A program made the translations under genes and the position numbers. The notes under the pieces are model-generated. The model did not search any database. It was not told the origin of the DNA and worked only from the letters and a program-made list of their open reading frames with translations. This document shows positions 15,738 to 63,574 of a DNA stretch of 64,000 nt, one piece after another; position 1 is the first letter of the stretch; each line of letters starts with the position of its first letter. This DNA is from Bacteroidales bacterium (GTDB lineage: Bacteria > Bacteroidota > Bacteroidia > Bacteroidales > P3): the NCBI GenBank assembly GCA_017559135.1, contig JAFYSZ010000006.1, positions 1-64,000 of the forward strand, in the 5' to 3' direction.

Positions 15738-18700
15738 ATGAAAAGGTTATTCTTTATTTTGTCGCTTTTATTTGCGATGCAAATTTCAGCACAGACAGAA
15801 ATTATTATTGGAGATATTGCTTCAAATCAAACATCGTCTAATTTGCCTATAAGTACTGATTATAAATATTCTTATTCGCAATCTATATATAAGCAAAGCG
15901 AATTGGTGGCAGGGGAGATTTCAAGCATAAGTTATTATCATGTTGGAGAAAATTACTCTGCCGGAACAATATCTATTTACTTTAAGGAAACAAGTGATTC
16001 AACCCTTAGCGGTTTTTCACCAGCTGATGGTTTTACACAAGTCTTTACAGGAGCCTTAAACCTAACTAATGGTTGGGTAACCTTTGTTTTTCCGGAAATT
16101 TTTGAGTATTCGGGGCAAAATAACTTAATAATAGCGGTTATAAAATCACATTCCGAGTATTCTTGGGGACATAATTTTATGACAATATCAGCAAATAGTA
16201 GTTCTATATATAGAAAGAGTGATTACGCTTCCTACACTCTAAGTACGACAAGCGGTTCTGGCGGAATAGAAAACAAAAAACCTATTGTGAAATTTGGAAT
16301 TTTCCCTTCCGAAGACTATTGTTATCCTCCGATTGATATATTCCCTAACACGATTACGCCAAATCAAGCAACAATTTCTTGGAATATTGAAGACGAATCT
16401 TCATCTGTTTTTGGCTTGGCTTATAAAACAGATGCAGATGAGGATTGGACTATTGCAAGTGATGTAATACAAGATACGTTTTATACATTAACAAATCTTA
16501 TCCCTTATACTAAATATCATTTTAGGCTTTGGACGATTTGCCCTGCAAGCAATAGTTTTGAGCGAAGTGGATATTTTATGACTACTCCAAACGAAAGTTG
16601 TTATATATCTTTGTCTTATGATGAGAATTTTGATGATGATGAAGATTTATGGCAGTGGCGTTACACCAACTATGGAGAAAACAGGTGGTATGTAGGGCCT
16701 GCGGTAAATAACACGCGAGATGAAGATGGTTATCTCACGCAAGGCAACGCTTTATATATAAGTAACAATGGCGGATTAAACAATACCTACAATAATACAG
16801 TGGCTTCTACTTCTTATTTTTCGACTTTGATACATATACAAGACAGTACTTATTATGGAATAGAGTTTGATTACAAAATGATAGGAGAAAGCTATCTTGA
16901 TAGGCTGACTGTATTTTTACTTCCTTTGTATGCAGAATTGACAACAAACATTTCTGGTGCTACAACACTTGGAACACTGCAAAATACTTCTAATACTTGG
17001 CGTAAATTTGAACAACCTTTTCCAGAAAACATATCTGAGGGAGATTATCAGTTGGTATTCTGTTGGGAAAACGACAATAACGCAGGACAAAATCCTCCCG
17101 CAGCAATAGATAACTTAAAAGTACATGCCTCACTTTGTGCAAGAGTAACCGATTTCACAGATACGATTGCGGATGTTGATGGAAATGCGAGTATGAGTGT
17201 TAATATAAATGACACAATCAATCAAACAGTATCATATATTGTAGAATATCGTCTTTCAGGAGAAAGTATATGGGATACAATTCAAGATCCAAATCCGGTA
17301 GAGATTCCATATTTGCCATATTCCTCTATAATAGAATACAGAGTCATTGCAAGTTGTGGCTCGGGAGGTAATTCTATGCCGTCAGATATTGTAAAAGTAG
17401 TTACACCATGTGGATTGACTCATCAATACCCTTATAAAGAATATTTTGAAACTGATATGTTTAATAGTTATTATGACATCTCGCAATATTGCTGGAAAAC
17501 AATAAATGAAGGCGACTCATGGATTAAATGGGGTTATTATAATTCCAATGGAATCAATGGAAGCGGAACGTTAAGTTATCAAAGCAGTAGTTATTCCAAT
17601 AATGTAGAATTTAATGATTGGATTATATCACCTGCTTTTGCCTTAGATGGAAATCAACGACTAAACTTTCAGTATAAAATACCGCAAGGCTATAATACAA
17701 ATACGCTTACTCCAAAAATAGATGTATATATTTACAATACAGATGTTGTAGATTACTCTTCGGCAGATGATACAATATTTTTTGAATACCTTACAACAAT
17801 TAACGATACGAACGTTAGAGTTGAACAATGGAAAATGGCAGAAATCCTTTTGGGCGATTACGTGGGTAATTTCCGCTTTGCACTTGTAGTAAAAGAAGCA
17901 AATCCTACATTTTTAGTTGATAATTTTGTTGTAAGTAATATCCCTGACTGTTTTGAAGTCTATGGTTTGGAAGTTGAAGCTTACTCTGGTACTTCTGTTT
18001 CTATCACATACGAAACTGCAAACGTCTCTGGAACGGGTGTTGCAATTGCTTACGCACAAGATATAGTAAATCAAAACTTTGATCCAGAAAGTGCAGATTG
18101 GCAAATAATCTCTGGTGATGAAGAATTGCCATATATTTTAGAGGGATTAGAACCTGGACAAACTTATATTTTCGCTGCTTCTCAAACATGTGGAGGTGAG
18201 TGGAGTGATACTGTGAAAGCAACATTGCCAATGCCTTATTCAACTCCATTTTCCTTTGATTTTAATTCTTCAAGCACTACTCCGGAAATGCAATTTACTG
18301 CTTCATCTGCTCAAAATATTTGGTTTATAGGAAATGTCTATAATAGCACTATTGAAAATCCTGATAGCACGCAAGGAGGAGCACTTTACATAACAAATGA
18401 TAATGGAGCATCTGCTTCATACACTCCTGGACATTATAATGCACGTGCTTACCTTAATGTAAACTTTGCTGGTGCGTCTGAATACCAACTTTCATTTGAT
18501 TGGATGTGCGAAGGGGCAGGAACAATTGATTATTTAAAAGTATATCTTATACCTTTCGGAGATACATTGAGTGAAAACTTTGCTATTACAGGACGTTTGA
18601 ATCAATCAATTCAGTGGCAAAGAGAAGAAATAATACTTCCTGCACATCTTTATGCAGGAGGTTATCAATTGGTTTTTGAGTTTAATATCGGTGGTTATTC

Positions 18701-23372: not shown

Positions 23373-23412
23373 AAAAGAGCGACTTTTTTTTCAAAGAGTC
23401 GCTATTTTTTTT
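23373..23412 (+). terminator. Intrinsic terminator after the LRR gene
   Basis: Stem 23373-23384 with 23397-23408 (AAAGAGCGACT/AGTCGCTATTT; one mismatch near the base), a loop of T residues plus CAAA, and a T-run to 23412. Same family as the terminators at 15603 and 22341. Confidence 0.85.
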
Positions 23413-23459
23413 CTTTGTTTTAGAAAAATAAATCAAAGAAATAATTTTCTAAAACAAAG
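23392..23459 (+). repeat. 21-bp-phased C-WWW-G array 2
   Basis: CAAAG at 23392 (terminator loop/arm), CTTTG at 23413, CAAAG at 23434 and CAAAG at 23455, each 21 bases apart. Bases 23434-23463 are identical over 30 positions to 48312-48341 in array 6. A -7-like box TATCTTTG (23466-23473) follows directly. Confidence 0.78.
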
Positions 23460-23493
23460 AAATATTATCTTTGCAAAAAAGAAATTTAAAATT

Positions 23494-28725: not shown

Positions 28726-28793
28726 CTTTACTTTTTTCAAAAAAAGCAAAGAAAAAAATAAATAAAACAAAGAAATAATTTGAGATTTCTTTA
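28726..28793 (+). repeat. 21-bp-phased C-WWW-R array 3
   Basis: CTTTA at 28726, CAAAG at 28747, CAAAG at 28768 and CTTTA at 28789, each 21 bases apart, between two convergent genes. The first unit begins three bases after the lipoprotein stop; the last reaches the 3' end of the HsdR-N gene. Confidence 0.65.
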
Positions 28794-29246
28794 CATTTTT
28801 GGAAGGGTGTTTTGAAAGGCGTATGTGTCTGATTGTCTTGTTAAGATAAAGTGCGACAAGCCGTTTGTAAGAAAAATATTTGGGGCGTTGAGTGTGTGAT
28901 TGTAGGCAAGGACTTGGTCGATTGTTTTTTGGGTTATTTCAACCTCGGTGCGTTTGCACTCAACTAAAAGAAAGGGTTTAAGATTTTTGTCGTAAACTAA
29001 TATATCAAATCGTTTATTCATTCCGTTTACTTTTATGTTTCCTTCAACGGCTATGAGTTCTTTTGGATAGGTGTTTGCTAATAAGTGAAGGCAATGTTGT
29101 CTAACCCATTCTTCTGGTGTTAGGGCTACGTATTGCTTGCGTATTATGTCAAAAATTTCCTCTCCCGAAGAGGTTTGTCTTATCGAGAGAGGAAATTCTG
29201 GAAAATTTAACTTTGTTTTATTATTCTTCACCTTCGCCTCCGCCAC
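28791..29246 (-). CDS. HsdR-N-like (PD-(D/E)XK) single-domain protein
   Basis: About 151 residues matching the N-terminal nuclease-like domain of type I restriction HsdR proteins, found alone in many Bacteroidota. The motif is RFDILVYDKN followed by LLVECKR, the D...ExK of the PD-(D/E)XK fold. There is no helicase part and no HsdM/HsdS nearby. The start is uncertain: GTG at 29246 overlaps the end of the upstream gene, and GTG at 29231 is an alternative. Activity as a nuclease is possible but not shown. Confidence 0.75.
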   Translation of the reverse strand: MAEAKVKNNKTKLNFPEFPLSIRQTSSGEEIFDIIRKQYVALTPEEWVRQHCLHLLANTYPKELIAVEGNIKVNGMNKRFDILVYDKNLKPFLLVECKRTEVEITQKTIDQVLAYNHTLNAPNIFLTNGLSHFILTRQSDTYAFQNTLPKM

Positions 29247-33554: not shown

Positions 33555-34532
33555 ATGAAAAAGAAGAAGGGTAACACATATCAACCACCCTTTACCATAA
33601 ATGATGAGATAAGCACTCTTACTATTAAGATCGGAGAACAAATCGGTAGATTATCAGTAGGAGTGCTTGAACAGCCTACACCACAATTACGAAAACAAAA
33701 TCGTATAAGAACAATACAATCATCATTGGCAATAGAAAACAACTCTTTGTCAATAGAACAAGTAACAGATATTATAGAAGGTAAGCGAGTATTAGGAGCT
33801 CCAAATGAAATTAAAGAAGTAAAAAATGCAATAGATGCATACAACCTTTTACTTGAACTCAATCCATATAACGAAAAAGACTTACTTAAAGCACATAAAC
33901 TAATGACATCTGAATTAGTTTCAGAAAGTGGTATTTATAGAAAAGGAGGAGTAGGAGTGTTTAAAGACGATAGATGCTTGCACATAGCACCATCAGCCGA
34001 TAGAGTACCAACACTAATAAAAGAATTACTACAATGGGTTGAAACAACCACTACCCACCCTTTAATAAGTAGTTGTGTTTTTCATTATGAATTTGAATTT
34101 ATACATCCATTTGCAGATGGTAACGGACGAATGGGACGAATGTGGCAAACACTTCTGCTAATGCAATGGCAACCTATTTTCGCATGGTTACCAGTTGAAA
34201 CAATAGTAAAAGAACATCAACAACAATATTACCAAGCTATTGCACAAAGTGATGCAACTGCAAATAGCACTCCATTTATTACTTTTATGTTACAATGCTT
34301 ATTGAAAGCATTACAAGAAATAGAAAAAAGTAACCAGAAAAGTAACCAGAAAAGTAACCAGAAAATTCTTTCTGAAATCAGAAAAAAACCTAAAATTTCA
34401 ATCAAAGAACTACAAGAAATCACAAACCTATCAGAAAGCGGAGTAAAAAAAATAATTCGACAATTACGACAAGACAATCAAATACAAAGAATAGGCGGAG
34501 CAAAAGGCGGATATTGGCAAGTGTTAGAATAA
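33555..34532 (+). CDS. Fic-family AMP transferase with C-terminal winged helix
   Basis: 325 residues. The Fic motif HPFADGNGRMGR (H184-R195) is complete, as needed for AMP transfer to a target hydroxyl. An N-terminal inhibitory helix is visible as S57-x-x-x-E61-N62 (SLAIENNSLS), so the enzyme is a self-inhibited class with an N-terminal glutamate. After the Fic core comes a linker with KSNQ three times, then a winged helix (ISIKELQEITNLSESGVKKI, GGAKGGYWQVL). This layout is common for chromosomal Fic proteins; the target is unknown. Confidence 0.92.
   Translation: MKKKKGNTYQPPFTINDEISTLTIKIGEQIGRLSVGVLEQPTPQLRKQNRIRTIQSSLAIENNSLSIEQVTDIIEGKRVLGAPNEIKEVKNAIDAYNLLLELNPYNEKDLLKAHKLMTSELVSESGIYRKGGVGVFKDDRCLHIAPSADRVPTLIKELLQWVETTTTHPLISSCVFHYEFEFIHPFADGNGRMGRMWQTLLLMQWQPIFAWLPVETIVKEHQQQYYQAIAQSDATANSTPFITFMLQCLLKALQEIEKSNQKSNQKSNQKILSEIRKKPKISIKELQEITNLSESGVKKIIRQLRQDNQIQRIGGAKGGYWQVLE
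34326..34361 (+). repeat. 12-bp tandem repeat in the Fic linker
   Basis: Three perfect copies of AAAAGTAACCAG, in frame, coding for three KSNQ units between the Fic core and the winged helix. Such a repeat can expand or contract by slippage without breaking the frame. Confidence 0.9.
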
Positions 34533-35129: not shown

Positions 35130-35177
35130 AATTGTATATTTTTGTTGTTAATAAACGCAAAGATATGAAAAAAAACT

Positions 35178-35266
35178 CTATGAAAAAATCTTTTTTTTCT
35201 ATGTTTTAGAAAAATATTTCTATGATTTATTTTATTTTTTCATAGAAATATTTGGTGATTACTTTA
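35178..35266 (+). repeat. 21-bp-phased array 4, CTATG/CATAG type
   Basis: CTATG at 35178, 35199 and 35220, CATAG at 35241 and CTTTA at 35262, each exactly 21 bases apart, filling the divergent promoter region between the winged-helix gene and the fucosidase gene. Confidence 0.8.
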
Positions 35267-42891: not shown

Positions 42892-42914
42892 TGCATTTAA
42901 AAGTTTAATTTCTG

Positions 42915-42944
42915 CAAAGATAAGAATAAAAAAAATAAAGCAAA
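42915..42944 (-). promoter_or_regulatory. Promoter of the C69 dipeptidase gene
   Basis: On the minus strand, TTTG (42944 to 42941) and TATCTTTG (42922 to 42915) are 18 bases apart, close to the TTTG-N19-TAnnTTTG consensus. The -33 box lies inside the first CAAAG unit of array 5. Confidence 0.7.
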
Positions 42945-43008
42945 GAATTAAAAAATTATTTCTTTGCTTTATTAAATTATTTCTTTGTTTTATTTATCTG
43001 ATTCTTTC
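42941..43008 (+). repeat. 21-bp-phased C-WWW-G array 5
   Basis: CAAAG at 42941, CTTTG at 42962, CTTTG at 42983 and a degenerate CTTTC at 43004, each 21 bases apart. The array fills the gap between the DUF4293 gene and the dipeptidase gene; the last, weakest unit lies in the DUF4293 3' end and may be chance. Confidence 0.65.
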
Positions 43009-45574: not shown

Positions 45575-48205
45575 CTACAAAAATGCCTTTAATTGTTCGT
45601 TTAGTGTTTCTATTTTTTGTTCTGCGTCTGAAAGTTTCTTTCTTTCCATTGCTACAACTTGTTCTGGTGCTTTACTAACAAAGTTTTCGTTTGAAAGTTT
45701 TTTCATTACAGAATTTTTAAAGCCTTCGTAGTATTCTATATCGGCTTTTATCTTCTTTATTTCTTCTTCTTTGTTTACGTTATCTGTCAAAGGAACAAAG
45801 AATTCAAGTGTACGAACCATTTTTGCAATCGCTTTTTCAATCTTTTCTTCGCAAGAAGTAAGTGTTTCAAGATTGCAAAGTTTGCAAACAATGTCTGAGT
45901 ATTTTTCTATAATGTTTCCTTCTTCTGAACGAGTGAAATAAACTTGTAAAGCAACTTTTTGAGCGATGTTTTTCTCATTTCTTACACTTCTGATTGCAGT
46001 AATAAATTCTTCAATGAAATCAAATTCGCTCAAAAGTGTAGAATTTACTTCTTTTATTGCAGGAAGTTGAGCCTGCATTATGAAATCGTTTTCTTTTCTC
46101 TCTTTTATGATATGATAAACCTCTTCGCTGACAAACGGCATAAAAGGATGAAGAATTTTCATTACATCTTCAAATATGTCAAGCGTTGCTTCGTAAGTTT
46201 TTCTATCGATTGGAGCTTGATAAGCAGGTTTAATAATTTCCAAATACCAAGAACAAAGATCGTCCCATACGAATTTGTAAACGCTCATCAAAGATTCAGA
46301 CAAACGATACTTTGAAAAATCATCTTCCAAATCGCAAAGCGTTTTATTCATCTTTTCTTTGAACCACTCAATTGCAAGAGCCGAACTTGCAGGTTGCTCA
46401 ATGTCTTCAACCTTCCAAGATTTTATCAAACGCAAAGCATTCCAAATCTTATTAGAGAAGTTTCTTCCTTGTTCGCAATAACTTTCATCAAAAGGTAAAT
46501 CGTTACCAGCAGGAGAGGCAAGCAACATTCCCATTCTTACACCGTCTGCTCCGTATTTCTCAATCAATTCAATAGGGTCAGGACTGTTTCCAAGACTTTT
46601 GCTCATCTTTCTTCCGAGTTTGTCTCTTACGATTCCAGTGAAGTAAACATTCTTAAACGGAACTTCTTTCTTGTATTCCAATCCGGCAATAATCATTCTT
46701 GCAACCCAAAAGAATATAATTTCAGGTGCAGTGATTAAATCGTTTGTAGGATAGTAGTAATTGATTTCTTCGTTGTTTGGATTTCTGATGCCATCAAAGA
46801 CACTCATAGGCCAAAGCCAAGAAGAAAACCAAGTATCTAAAACATCTTCATCTTGTTTTAAGTCATTGAGTGTGTAATTCTCTGTTGGGAAAAGTTCTTG
46901 TGCTTTTTTCAACGCTTCTTCTGCTGATTTTGCAACAACAAATTCCCTATTTGGTAAATGATATGCAGGAATTCTTTGTCCCCACCATAGTTGTCGAGAA
47001 ATACACCAGTCTTTTACGTTTTCCATCCAATAACGGTAAGTATTTTTGAACTTAGAAGGGTGGAATTTTATTTCATCGCTCATTACAACTTCAAGAGCAG
47101 GTTTTGCTAAGTCTTGCATTTTCAAAAACCATTGAAGAGATAATTTTGGTTCTATTACAGCTCCTGTTCTTTCTGAGCAACCTATTTTATTATTATAGTC
47201 TTCTATTTTGTGCATTAAGTCTGCTGCTTGAAGATCTTTTGCAATTTGTTTTCTGCATTCAAATCTATCTAATCCAGCGTACTGTTTTCCATTTTCGTTT
47301 AGGCTTCCGTTGTCGTTGAATATGTCAATTGAGTCAAGTTTGTGCTTGATTCCTAAATTATAGTCGTTAATATCGTGAGCAGGTGTTATTTTTAATGCTC
47401 CTGTACCAAATTCTCTATCTACATATTCATCAAATATCACAGGAATGCTTCGTCCTACGATTGGAATTATTACTTTTTTTCCTTTTAAATGAGAATATCT
47501 CTCATCTTCTGGGTGAACGCAAACTGCTGTGTCTCCTAAAATCGTTTCTGGACGTGTGGTTGCTACAATTATATATTCGTCTGAGTTTTCTATTTTGTAT
47601 TTTAAGTAATATAATTTAGAGTTTTGTTCTTTGAAAATTACTTCTTCATCACTCAAAGCAGTCAATGCGACAGGATCCCAGTTTACCATACGAACGCCTC
47701 TGTAAATAAGACCTTTTTCATATAAGTCTACAAAGACGTCAATCACTGATTCGTATAAAGCATCTTCCATTGTAAAACGTGTTCTGTCCCAATCGCAAGA
47801 TGCACCGAGTTTTTTAAGTTGTTCGAGTATGATTCCGCCGTGTTTTTCTTTCCATTGCCAAGCGTGAGACAAAAATTCCTCTCTACTAAGGTCTTTTTTG
47901 TCAATTCCTTCTGCCTTTAATTTTGCGACAACCTTTGCTTCGGTTGCAATAGAAGCGTGATCGGTGCCAGGAACCCAACAAGCGTTAAATCCTTTCATTC
48001 TTGCACGGCGTACAAGCACGTCTTGAATTGTGTTATTAAGCATGTGTCCCATGTGAAGTACTCCCGTAACATTAGGAGGGGGGATTACGATTGTAAAAGC
48101 CTTACGATTATCAGGTTTAGAACTAAAACATTTGTTTTCTAACCAAGCAGAATACCATTTATCTTCAACTATTGCTGGATTATATTTGCTTTCTATTTCT
48201 ATCAT
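45575..48205 (-). CDS. valS: Valyl-tRNA synthetase
   Basis: 876 residues. Class I motifs HMGH (VLHMGHMLN) and KMSKS ([10 protein letters not shown]) are both present, as are the editing domain ([19 protein letters not shown]) and the C-terminal coiled coil of ValS (about 805-876). It charges tRNA-Val. The promoter region is shared with rnr and filled by array 6; a -7-like box TATCTTTG lies on the minus strand (48245 to 48238). Confidence 0.98.
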
Positions 48206-48248
48206 AGTTAAAATTATTTTAGTGAATTATGAATTGGCAAAGATAAAA

Positions 48249-48358
48249 CAAAAAAAGCAATTATTAAATCAAAGAAATAAGAAAATAAAACAAAGAAATA
48301 TTTTTTTAAAACAAAGAAATAATTTTCTAAAACAAAGAAATTATTTATTTTTGCAAAG
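48249..48358 (+). repeat. 21-bp-phased CAAAG array 6
   Basis: CAAAGAAAT at 48270, 48291, 48312, 48333 and 48354, exactly 21 bases apart, with a degenerate CAAAA unit in phase at 48249. This is the longest and most regular array of the window and fills the divergent valS/rnr promoter region. Confidence 0.88.
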
Positions 48359-48372
48359 AAATATCTTTTGTT

Positions 48373-63319: not shown

Positions 63320-63387
63320 CTATGATTTACAGAAATATTTCATAGAGTTAGAAAATTATTTCATAGAGTAAAAAAAATATTTCTTTG
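63299..63387 (+). repeat. 21-bp-phased array 7, CTATG/CATAG type
   Basis: CAAAG at 63299 (terminator loop), CTATG at 63320, CATAG at 63341 and 63362, and CTTTG at 63383, each 21 bases apart, in the 314-base gap between the T9SS gene and the winged-helix gene. The rest of this gap (63388-63473) is AT-rich without other features. Confidence 0.82.
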
Positions 63388-63473
63388 ATTTTTTAAAAAA
63401 TTCAAAAAATGTATAATCCTATTATATTATCTATTTTTATTTATTACTATATTATAATTTATTATTATATAAC

Positions 63474-63527
63474 AAAATGTTAAGTGAAATTAACAAAATG
63501 TTAAGTTTGCTTGATAAAATGTTAAGT
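63474..63527 (+). repeat. Three 12-bp direct repeats at 21-bp period
   Basis: AAAATGTTAAGT at 63474-63485, 63495-63506 and 63516-63527: three perfect copies, each 21 bases apart, 47 bases past the 3' end of the winged-helix gene. The motif differs from the C-WWW-G arrays but has the same period. It looks like an iteron or operator set. Confidence 0.88.
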
Positions 63528-63574
63528 TTTTTTCTACATTGTGGAGGGTTTAGATACACTTGTTCAATGGGTTT

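What the first reader, a model, noticed from the sequence alone, without database searches (positions are those of the whole stretch)
48249..48358. Five perfect CAAAGAAAT units at exact 21-bp period between valS and rnr
Units begin at 48270, 48291, 48312, 48333 and 48354, with a weaker in-phase one at 48249. The period equals two helical turns, so all sites face the same side of DNA, as expected for cooperative binding of a protein. The array fills a divergent promoter region of two housekeeping genes. It is neither CRISPR (no unique spacers of CRISPR size) nor a coding repeat. I know no described element with this form.
Basis: seen in the sequence. Interest (0 to 1): 0.85.

Follow-up and report, generated by a model that had tools for sequence, protein, structure and literature searches.

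The report
Genome-wide 21-bp-phased intergenic site arrays
The five repeats are one of hundreds of short arrays that fill gaps between genes in this bacterial family, always spaced exactly two DNA turns apart although the repeated letters differ between species, which suggests docking rows for a DNA-packaging or regulatory protein, possibly an HU-like one.

Summary
In detail: five exact CAAAGAAAT units at 21-bp spacing between valS and rnr (48270-48362). They belong to a genome-wide system. In intergenic DNA of this genome identical 6-mers recur at lag 21 about 25 times above background, with peaks at 42, 63 and 84. The underlying unit is a 15-bp dyad, TA-N3-C-N3-G-N3-TA, plus a 6-bp linker. 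Adjacent pairs number 154 in this genome, 304 and 489 in two relatives, and 0 or 1 in the control pattern. Congeners use other unit sequences but keep the 21-bp (sometimes 22-bp) period. Between orthologous arrays, indels are mostly multiples of 21, cores are conserved and linkers are not. Units share one helical face relative to the TAnnTTTG promoter box. Curvature, LytTR, Lrp, RAYT/REP and CRISPR explanations were tested and rejected. Array-bearing genera are the ones carrying HU-HIG proteins (HU/IHF superfamily). HU-HIG genes are preceded by mostly palindromic 22-bp arrays (10 of 17 versus 11 of 162 length-matched controls, p = 6e-7). Best explanation: phased binding arrays for an oligomerising dimeric protein, plausibly HU-HIG. 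Binding is inferred, and the window's own alphabet is not yet tied to a particular gene. Main rival: a non-functional minisatellite like Porphyromonas BrickBuilt.

The parts
48244..48258 (+). degenerate first slot, TAAAACAAAAAAAGC (central G lost)
   Evidence: in register with the array
48265..48279 (+). dyad unit 1, TAAATCAAAGAAATA (TA-N3-C-N3-G-N3-TA)
   Evidence: exact match to the genome-wide 15-mer
48286..48300 (+). dyad unit 2, TAAAACAAAGAAATA
   Evidence: exact match, 21 bp from unit 1
48307..48321 (+). dyad unit 3, TAAAACAAAGAAATA
   Evidence: exact match, 21 bp from unit 2
48328..48342 (+). dyad unit 4, TAAAACAAAGAAATT (last TA degenerate); C is 17 bp upstream of the TTTG of the rnr -7 box
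48349..48363 (+). unit 5, TTTTGCAAAGAAATA; overlaps and follows the rnr -7 box
48346..48353 (+). putative rnr promoter -7 box TATTTTTG (Bacteroidetes TAnnTTTG)
   Evidence: TAnnTTTG found near 115 of 171 gene starts against 10 for the reversed control; also present in the G004 orthologue
48238..48245 (-). putative valS promoter -7 box TATCTTTG
45575..48205 (-). valS, valyl-tRNA synthetase
   Evidence: Pfam PF00133, PF08264, PF10458
48373..50520 (+). rnr, ribonuclease R (RNB domain)
   Evidence: Pfam PF00773, PF08206, PF00575
15634..15690 (.). another 21-bp array, upstream of the gene at 15738
23387..23464 (+). another 21-bp array with one inverted unit (CTTTG) in the same register
28747..28775 (+). 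two-unit array near the 3' end of the minus-strand ORF 28791-29246
35167..35241 (.). 21-bp array of CTATG/CATAG cores between divergent genes
42922..42992 (-). 21-bp array with direct and inverted units upstream of the peptidase C69 gene; nearly identical in relative G004 although flanking coding DNA is about 83 percent identical
63336..63383 (+). 21-bp array, ATTTCATAGAGT alphabet
63470..63529 (+). 21-bp array with a different alphabet, TAACAAAATGTTAAGTTTAAT

Best explanation
The repeats are one of a few hundred intergenic arrays of a 15-bp two-fold-symmetric site (TA-N3-C-N3-G-N3-TA in this species) with 6-bp linkers, which places a site every two helical turns on one face of the DNA. The most likely mechanism is that a dimeric, oligomerising DNA-binding protein docks side by side along each array and forms a short nucleoprotein filament in the gap between genes; where an array reaches a promoter it would restrict or tune RNA polymerase access. 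The array geometry, genome-wide spread, core conservation and promoter-face lock are shown by computation. Protein binding and its effect are inferred. The leading candidate binder is the HU-HIG group of the HU/IHF superfamily: its paralogues occur in the array-bearing genera, and their genes often carry their own private, mostly palindromic 21-23-bp arrays upstream, which suggests autoregulation. In this reading different paralogues read different alphabets, which would explain why period is kept while sequence changes.
For: Lag-21 peak in intergenic DNA (502 against roughly 10-55) with harmonics, and single-base C-C autocorrelation peaking at 21, 42, 63, 84 and 105. The 15-mer occurs 84 times against 5 expected, with inter-site distances of only 21, 42 and 63 apart from one 22. 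Dyad outline with C...G in register in both orientations, and array edges that keep the outer TA. Orthologous indels mostly multiples of 21; core identity 0.83 (C and G 0.94) against linker 0.68 and other intergenic 0.75. Same helical face relative to the -7 box (Rayleigh p 2.7e-4 in G000; G004 p 0.085 with the same mean phase), with 11 of 34 promoters placing the nearest unit at exactly phase 18. Period set to 21 or 22 whatever the sequence, and near-perfect intergenic duplications essentially only at 21-22. HU-HIG in genera g1, g2, g4, g10, g12 and only canonical HU in g3, g5-g9, g11, matching the array distribution. 22-bp arrays upstream of 10 of 17 HU-HIG genes against 11 of 162 length-matched controls, p 6e-7. 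One HU-HIG-linked palindrome, GATGTACATC, recurs elsewhere in its genome and in no other held genome. HU-HIG matches HU and IHF structures by sequence.
Against: No binding data exist. Arrays are as dense in convergent gaps as near promoters, so promoter control cannot be the only role. The dominant CAAAG alphabet of this species has not been found at a HU-HIG gene; the HU-HIG-linked arrays are mostly 22 bp, and the HU-HIG gene at C1:192786 has no upstream array. The genera are related, so the co-occurrence is not a set of independent events. G059, another family with HU-HIG, shows only a weak 21-23 signal, and G066 has 23-bp arrays with only a weak, canonical-HU-level match. Exact dyad symmetry of unit consensus is not above shuffled units at period 21 in general. 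G014 arrays are not at promoters.
Confidence: 0.5

Rival explanations
1. The arrays are a non-functional or selfish minisatellite: a repeat family that expands and spreads in intergenic DNA by slippage, recombination and template switching, with 21 bp imposed by the copying mechanism rather than by a bound protein (BrickBuilt-like).
For: Unit-wise gain and loss between species, concerted change of unit sequence within an array, dispersed identical cassettes in G014, presence in every kind of gap, several unrelated alphabets per genome, and a 23-bp intergenic minisatellite known in Porphyromonas gingivalis (PMC4596501).
Against: Core conserved while linkers drift; helical-face lock to promoters; ordinary slippage in coding DNA gives 9 and 12 bp; array edges end on a complete dyad; association with HU-HIG genes.
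Confidence: 0.3
2. The arrays are operators for a sequence-specific dimeric regulator other than HU-HIG, for example a helix-turn-helix repressor acting cooperatively as at lambda OR.
For: 15-bp dyad with a 6-bp gap resembles tandem phage operators in general layout (own knowledge); the last unit often lies between the -33 and -7 regions.
Against: Hundreds of arrays in all gap types; alphabets replaced wholesale between congeners; LytTR absent from G000, G003, G004, G005 and Lrp/AsnC absent from all family members tested.
Confidence: 0.15
3. REP/BIME-type repeats mobilised by a RAYT (Y1) transposase.
For: Intergenic, dispersed, palindromic, with direct and inverted units.
Against: PF01797 is absent from the array-rich genomes tested apart from one weak hit in G033, and is present mainly in array-poor genera.
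Confidence: 0.02
4. Intrinsically curved DNA made by phased A-tracts upstream of promoters.
For: AT-rich, two-turn period, same face as the promoter.
Against: Wedge-model curvature of arrays equals dinucleotide shuffles (mean z -0.04 and 0.18) and is below that of non-array gaps (0.69 and 0.43); no 10-11-bp lag.
Confidence: 0.02

Closest known systems
BrickBuilt minisatellite/MITE of Porphyromonas gingivalis (PMC4596501)
   Same: Order Bacteroidales; tandem short units of nearly the same length, intergenic, dispersed, no spacer of CRISPR kind.
   Different: 23 bp rather than 21; 19 elements per genome with leader, tail and inverted-repeat ends; one unit family. Here there are hundreds of loci, no common flank, several alphabets and a dyad core.
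REP/BIME/REPIN elements with RAYT transposase
   Same: Dispersed intergenic palindromic units in direct and inverted orientation.
   Different: No Y1 transposase in the array-rich genomes apart from one weak hit; fixed 21-bp helical register; units of 15 bp without strong hairpins.
Tandem cooperative operators such as lambda OR/OL (own knowledge)
   Same: Dyad sites with a short gap, repeated about every two turns, last site next to the promoter.
   Different: Hundreds of arrays per genome, up to 8 or more units, also in convergent gaps; binder unknown.
HU/IHF superfamily, HU-HIG clade (PF18291)
   Same: Candidate binder; dimeric architectural DNA proteins; paralogues expanded in array-bearing genera.
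   Different: No sequence-specific phased arrays or autoregulatory palindrome arrays are described for HU-HIG in the papers searched.
LytTR response-regulator sites (9-bp direct repeats, 12-bp spacer, 21-bp period; own knowledge)
   Same: Identical 9 + 12 spacing to CAAAGAAAT.
   Different: No LytTR protein in this species or in G003, G004, G005.

Membership tests
BrickBuilt MITE | 23-nt tandem unit | tested here: not met
   Period histogram 21:106, 22:16, 23:3
BrickBuilt MITE | conserved leader and tail with terminal inverted repeats | tested here: not met
   Base composition returns to background outside the outer TA of the arrays
REP/BIME/REPIN | RAYT (Y1_Tnp PF01797) in the genome | tested here: not met
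   No match in G000-G005, G014, G016, G026, G029, G035, G038, G047; one weak match in G033
LytTR operator | a LytTR-domain protein (PF04397) in the genome | tested here: not met
   0 matches in G000, G003, G004, G005
Lrp/AsnC (FFRP) arrays | an AsnC-type regulator (PF01037) | tested here: not met
   0 of the 30 family-f1 genomes searched
Curved-DNA element | curvature above composition-matched shuffles | tested here: not met
   mean z -0.04 and 0.18
CRISPR array | repeats of 20 bp or more with unique spacers of 25-50 bp | tested here: not met
   15-bp units with 6-bp linkers
Rfam RNA element | match to a described RNA family | tested here: not met
   no match in the window
HU-HIG target array | HU-HIG gene in the same genome | tested here: met
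   strong matches in G000, at C1:192786, C1:281250 and C16:374704
HU-HIG target array | the same alphabet upstream of a HU-HIG gene | tested here: inconclusive
   The array at C1:281250 uses CATCGGACC at 21 bp, not CAAAG; the flank of C16:374704 was not read
HU-HIG target array | HU-HIG protein binds the array | not testable with these tools
   needs EMSA, DAP-seq or ChIP

The most novel reading that the evidence does not exclude
A clade of HU/IHF-superfamily paralogues (HU-HIG) has become a set of sequence-specific, filament-forming nucleoid proteins. Each reads its own palindromic alphabet in 21-23-bp-phased intergenic arrays, regulates its own gene through such an array, and in some species one alphabet has spread to hundreds of intergenic sites. 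Alphabets are replaced between congeners while geometry stays fixed.
Probability: 0.38. Interest if true: 0.93.

Novelty: new variant of a known kind. Interest (0 to 1): 0.82.

Why it matters
A fixed 21-bp period kept across species while the repeated sequence changes completely is unusual for any bacterial repeat or operator. It points to selection on protein-protein geometry along DNA rather than on one motif. If HU-HIG proteins are the binders, a large uncharacterised paralogue family of Bacteroidales (up to 50 matches per genome here) gains a testable function, and bacterial chromatin gains a sequence-encoded, rapidly evolving system.

Tried and rejected
LytTR sites (9 + 12 = 21 spacing fits, but no LytTR protein). 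Lrp/AsnC (absent). RAYT/REP (absent apart from one weak hit). Static curvature. CRISPR (geometry). Rfam elements (none). Intrinsic terminators: some arrays hold AT-rich inverted pairs (75253-75371), but most units are direct and arrays also fill divergent gaps. Spread by viruses: the triple pattern had 10 hits in 2.9 million IMG/VR contigs, background-like from their appearance. Generic slippage: coding duplications are 9 and 12 bp. Each unit as a -33 or -7 promoter element: the -33 to -7 distance here is about 27 bp, not 21, although CTTTG units sometimes coincide with the -33 position. A raw control using fixed 700-bp upstream windows gave OR 24 but is biased by gap length; the length-matched result is the one to use. 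Paper searches found no prior description. No structure prediction was run.

Full report
Observation. The window sequence holds CAAAGAAAT at 48270, 48291, 48312, 48333 and 48354, between valS on the minus strand and rnr on the plus strand. In 4000 simulated 167-bp intergenic sequences no 7-mer (at least 2 G/C) occurred three times at any exact period from 15 to 30.

Genome-wide extent. CAAAGAAA-N13-CAAAGAAA occurs 87 times in the 2.04-Mb genome against 4 for the reversed control. In about 35 kb of intergenic DNA, identical 6-mers at lag 21 number 502 against roughly 10-55 at other lags, with harmonics at 42, 63 and 84. In all, 48 of 164 intergenic regions carry lag-21/42 signal against 0-11 at the other lags tested. 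At single-base level the C-C autocorrelation peaks exactly at 21, 42, 63, 84 and 105, and C to G peaks at 4, 25 and 46, so the register is C-N3-G every 21 bp. Intergenic regions were defined by a simple ORF caller written here, not by a trained gene finder, so some short genes and RNAs are counted as intergenic and some arrays fall inside spurious ORFs.

The unit. Averaging phased units gives TA-N3-C-N3-G-N3-TA. This 15-mer occurs 84 times in the sampled intergenic DNA against 5.0 expected; distances between sites are 21 (36 times), 42 (16), 63 (5) and 22 (1). Direct and inverted units (CAAAG, CTTTG, CTATG, CATAG) are mixed in the same register. Array edges keep their outer TA, so the 15-mer, not the linker-centred sequence, is the unit. 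Other alphabets coexist in the genome, such as TTTTCATCGGACC and TAACAAAATGTTAAG.

Relatives. The two-unit 15-mer pattern occurs 154 times in this genome, 489 in G014, 304 in G038, 72 in G004 and 65 in G003; the control is 0 or 1 in these, and other families of the order have 0-2. Congeners G001, G002 and G005 lack or nearly lack this pattern but have 21-bp-spaced units of other sequence at the same valS-rnr position. G035 uses AT-N3-G-N3-C-N3-AT. Over 28 sampled genomes, three-unit intergenic arrays have period 21 in 106 cases, 22 in 16, 23 in 3, and any other in at most 4. Array-free genera of the family are mostly, but not only, G+C-rich.

Evolution. Among 42 orthologous gaps of this genome and G004, larger indels include -21, 20, 22, 22, 43, 63, -63 and 167. 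Within arrays the 15-bp core is 83 percent identical (C and G 94), the linker 68, and non-array intergenic DNA 75. The array at 42892-42993 is nearly invariant although flanking coding DNA is about 83 percent identical. At valS-rnr the unit sequence has changed in concert while the period stayed. Near-perfect intergenic duplications are essentially only 21-22 bp, whereas coding ones are mostly 9 and 12.

Promoters. A TAnnTTTG box lies near 115 of 171 starts against 10 for the reversed control; it is the consensus used in the Bacteroides literature (papers holding the term listed; the consensus itself from own knowledge). In this genome 11 of 34 promoters with sites have the nearest unit at phase 18. 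The helical phase of the nearest unit is non-uniform at 10.5 bp (p 2.7e-4); G004 shows the same mean phase at p 0.085. Yet arrays are equally dense in convergent, co-directional and divergent gaps, and in G014 none of the 27 sampled promoters has a site nearby. Promoter control is therefore at most part of the role.

Search for the binder. LytTR, Lrp/AsnC and RAYT were excluded by gene content; curvature was excluded by a wedge model. HU-HIG (PF18291) matches at E below 1e-14 occur in genera g1, g2, g4, g10 and g12, while g3, g5, g6, g7, g8, g9 and g11 show only canonical-HU-level matches. This agrees with the array distribution by genus, but the genera may form one clade, so it is not independent evidence. 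A profile of the HU-HIG proteins matches HU and IHF structures.

Cis association. Upstream gaps of HU-HIG genes often hold arrays with private units, such as GATGTACATC, AAGTGCCACTT, ATAAGTCAGACTTAT, ATAATGGCATTAT and TTAAACGGCGTTTAA. With gap length matched (at least 250 bp), any 20-23-bp array is found at 13 of 17 HU-HIG genes against 58 of 162 controls (p 0.0015), and a 22-bp array at 10 of 17 against 11 of 162 (p 6e-7). Controls are from largely the same genomes, but G000, G036, G044 and G045 contribute HU-HIG genes and no controls. An earlier unmatched comparison overstates the effect. One such palindrome, GATGTACATC, recurs elsewhere in its genome and not in 1.4 Mb of others. In G059, of another family, one HU-HIG gene has a 23-bp array upstream (CACGCAGCGTG), but the overall 21-23 signal is weak.

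Interpretation. The data fit rows of dyad sites for a dimeric protein that packs side by side, two turns per dimer. HU-HIG is the best candidate, at about 0.4, because of genus co-occurrence and the arrays at its own genes. The gap in the argument is that the window's CAAAG alphabet has not been found at a HU-HIG gene and HU-HIG-linked arrays are mostly 22 bp. A minisatellite without function remains the main rival, at about 0.3. Binding, filament formation and any effect on transcription are inferred, not shown.

Noticed in passing
G000 C1:106807-107003 (outside the window): CAAAGAAAC(T/A)AA(G/A)CCTGCAAG repeats at 21 bp fall in a predicted coding region and look like a 7-codon repeat, so they probably do not belong to the intergenic arrays; the reading frame was not confirmed.
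   Followed up: partly
G004 fetched contigs (L166-L167, L211-L230): A very strong repeat lag of 76-77 bp (1138 identical 6-mer pairs at 77), which may be a CRISPR array.
   Followed up: no
G066, L262 8139-8337 and 9601-9842: 23-bp intergenic arrays CTCACAAGTTTGTCAGTTTTTAC in another family whose genome has only one weak, canonical-HU-level HU-HIG match.
   Followed up: partly
G047, L249-L250: Strong 51-bp and 15-bp repeat lags in regions called intergenic; possibly uncalled repetitive coding sequence.
   Followed up: no
G006, G017, G027, G036, G042, G024: Large HU-HIG paralogue sets (23 to 50 matches per genome), in G036 often two or three in tandem.
   Followed up: partly
window 34326-34365: A perfect 12-bp tandem repeat AAAAGTAACCAG, 3.3 copies, in coding sequence.
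   Followed up: no
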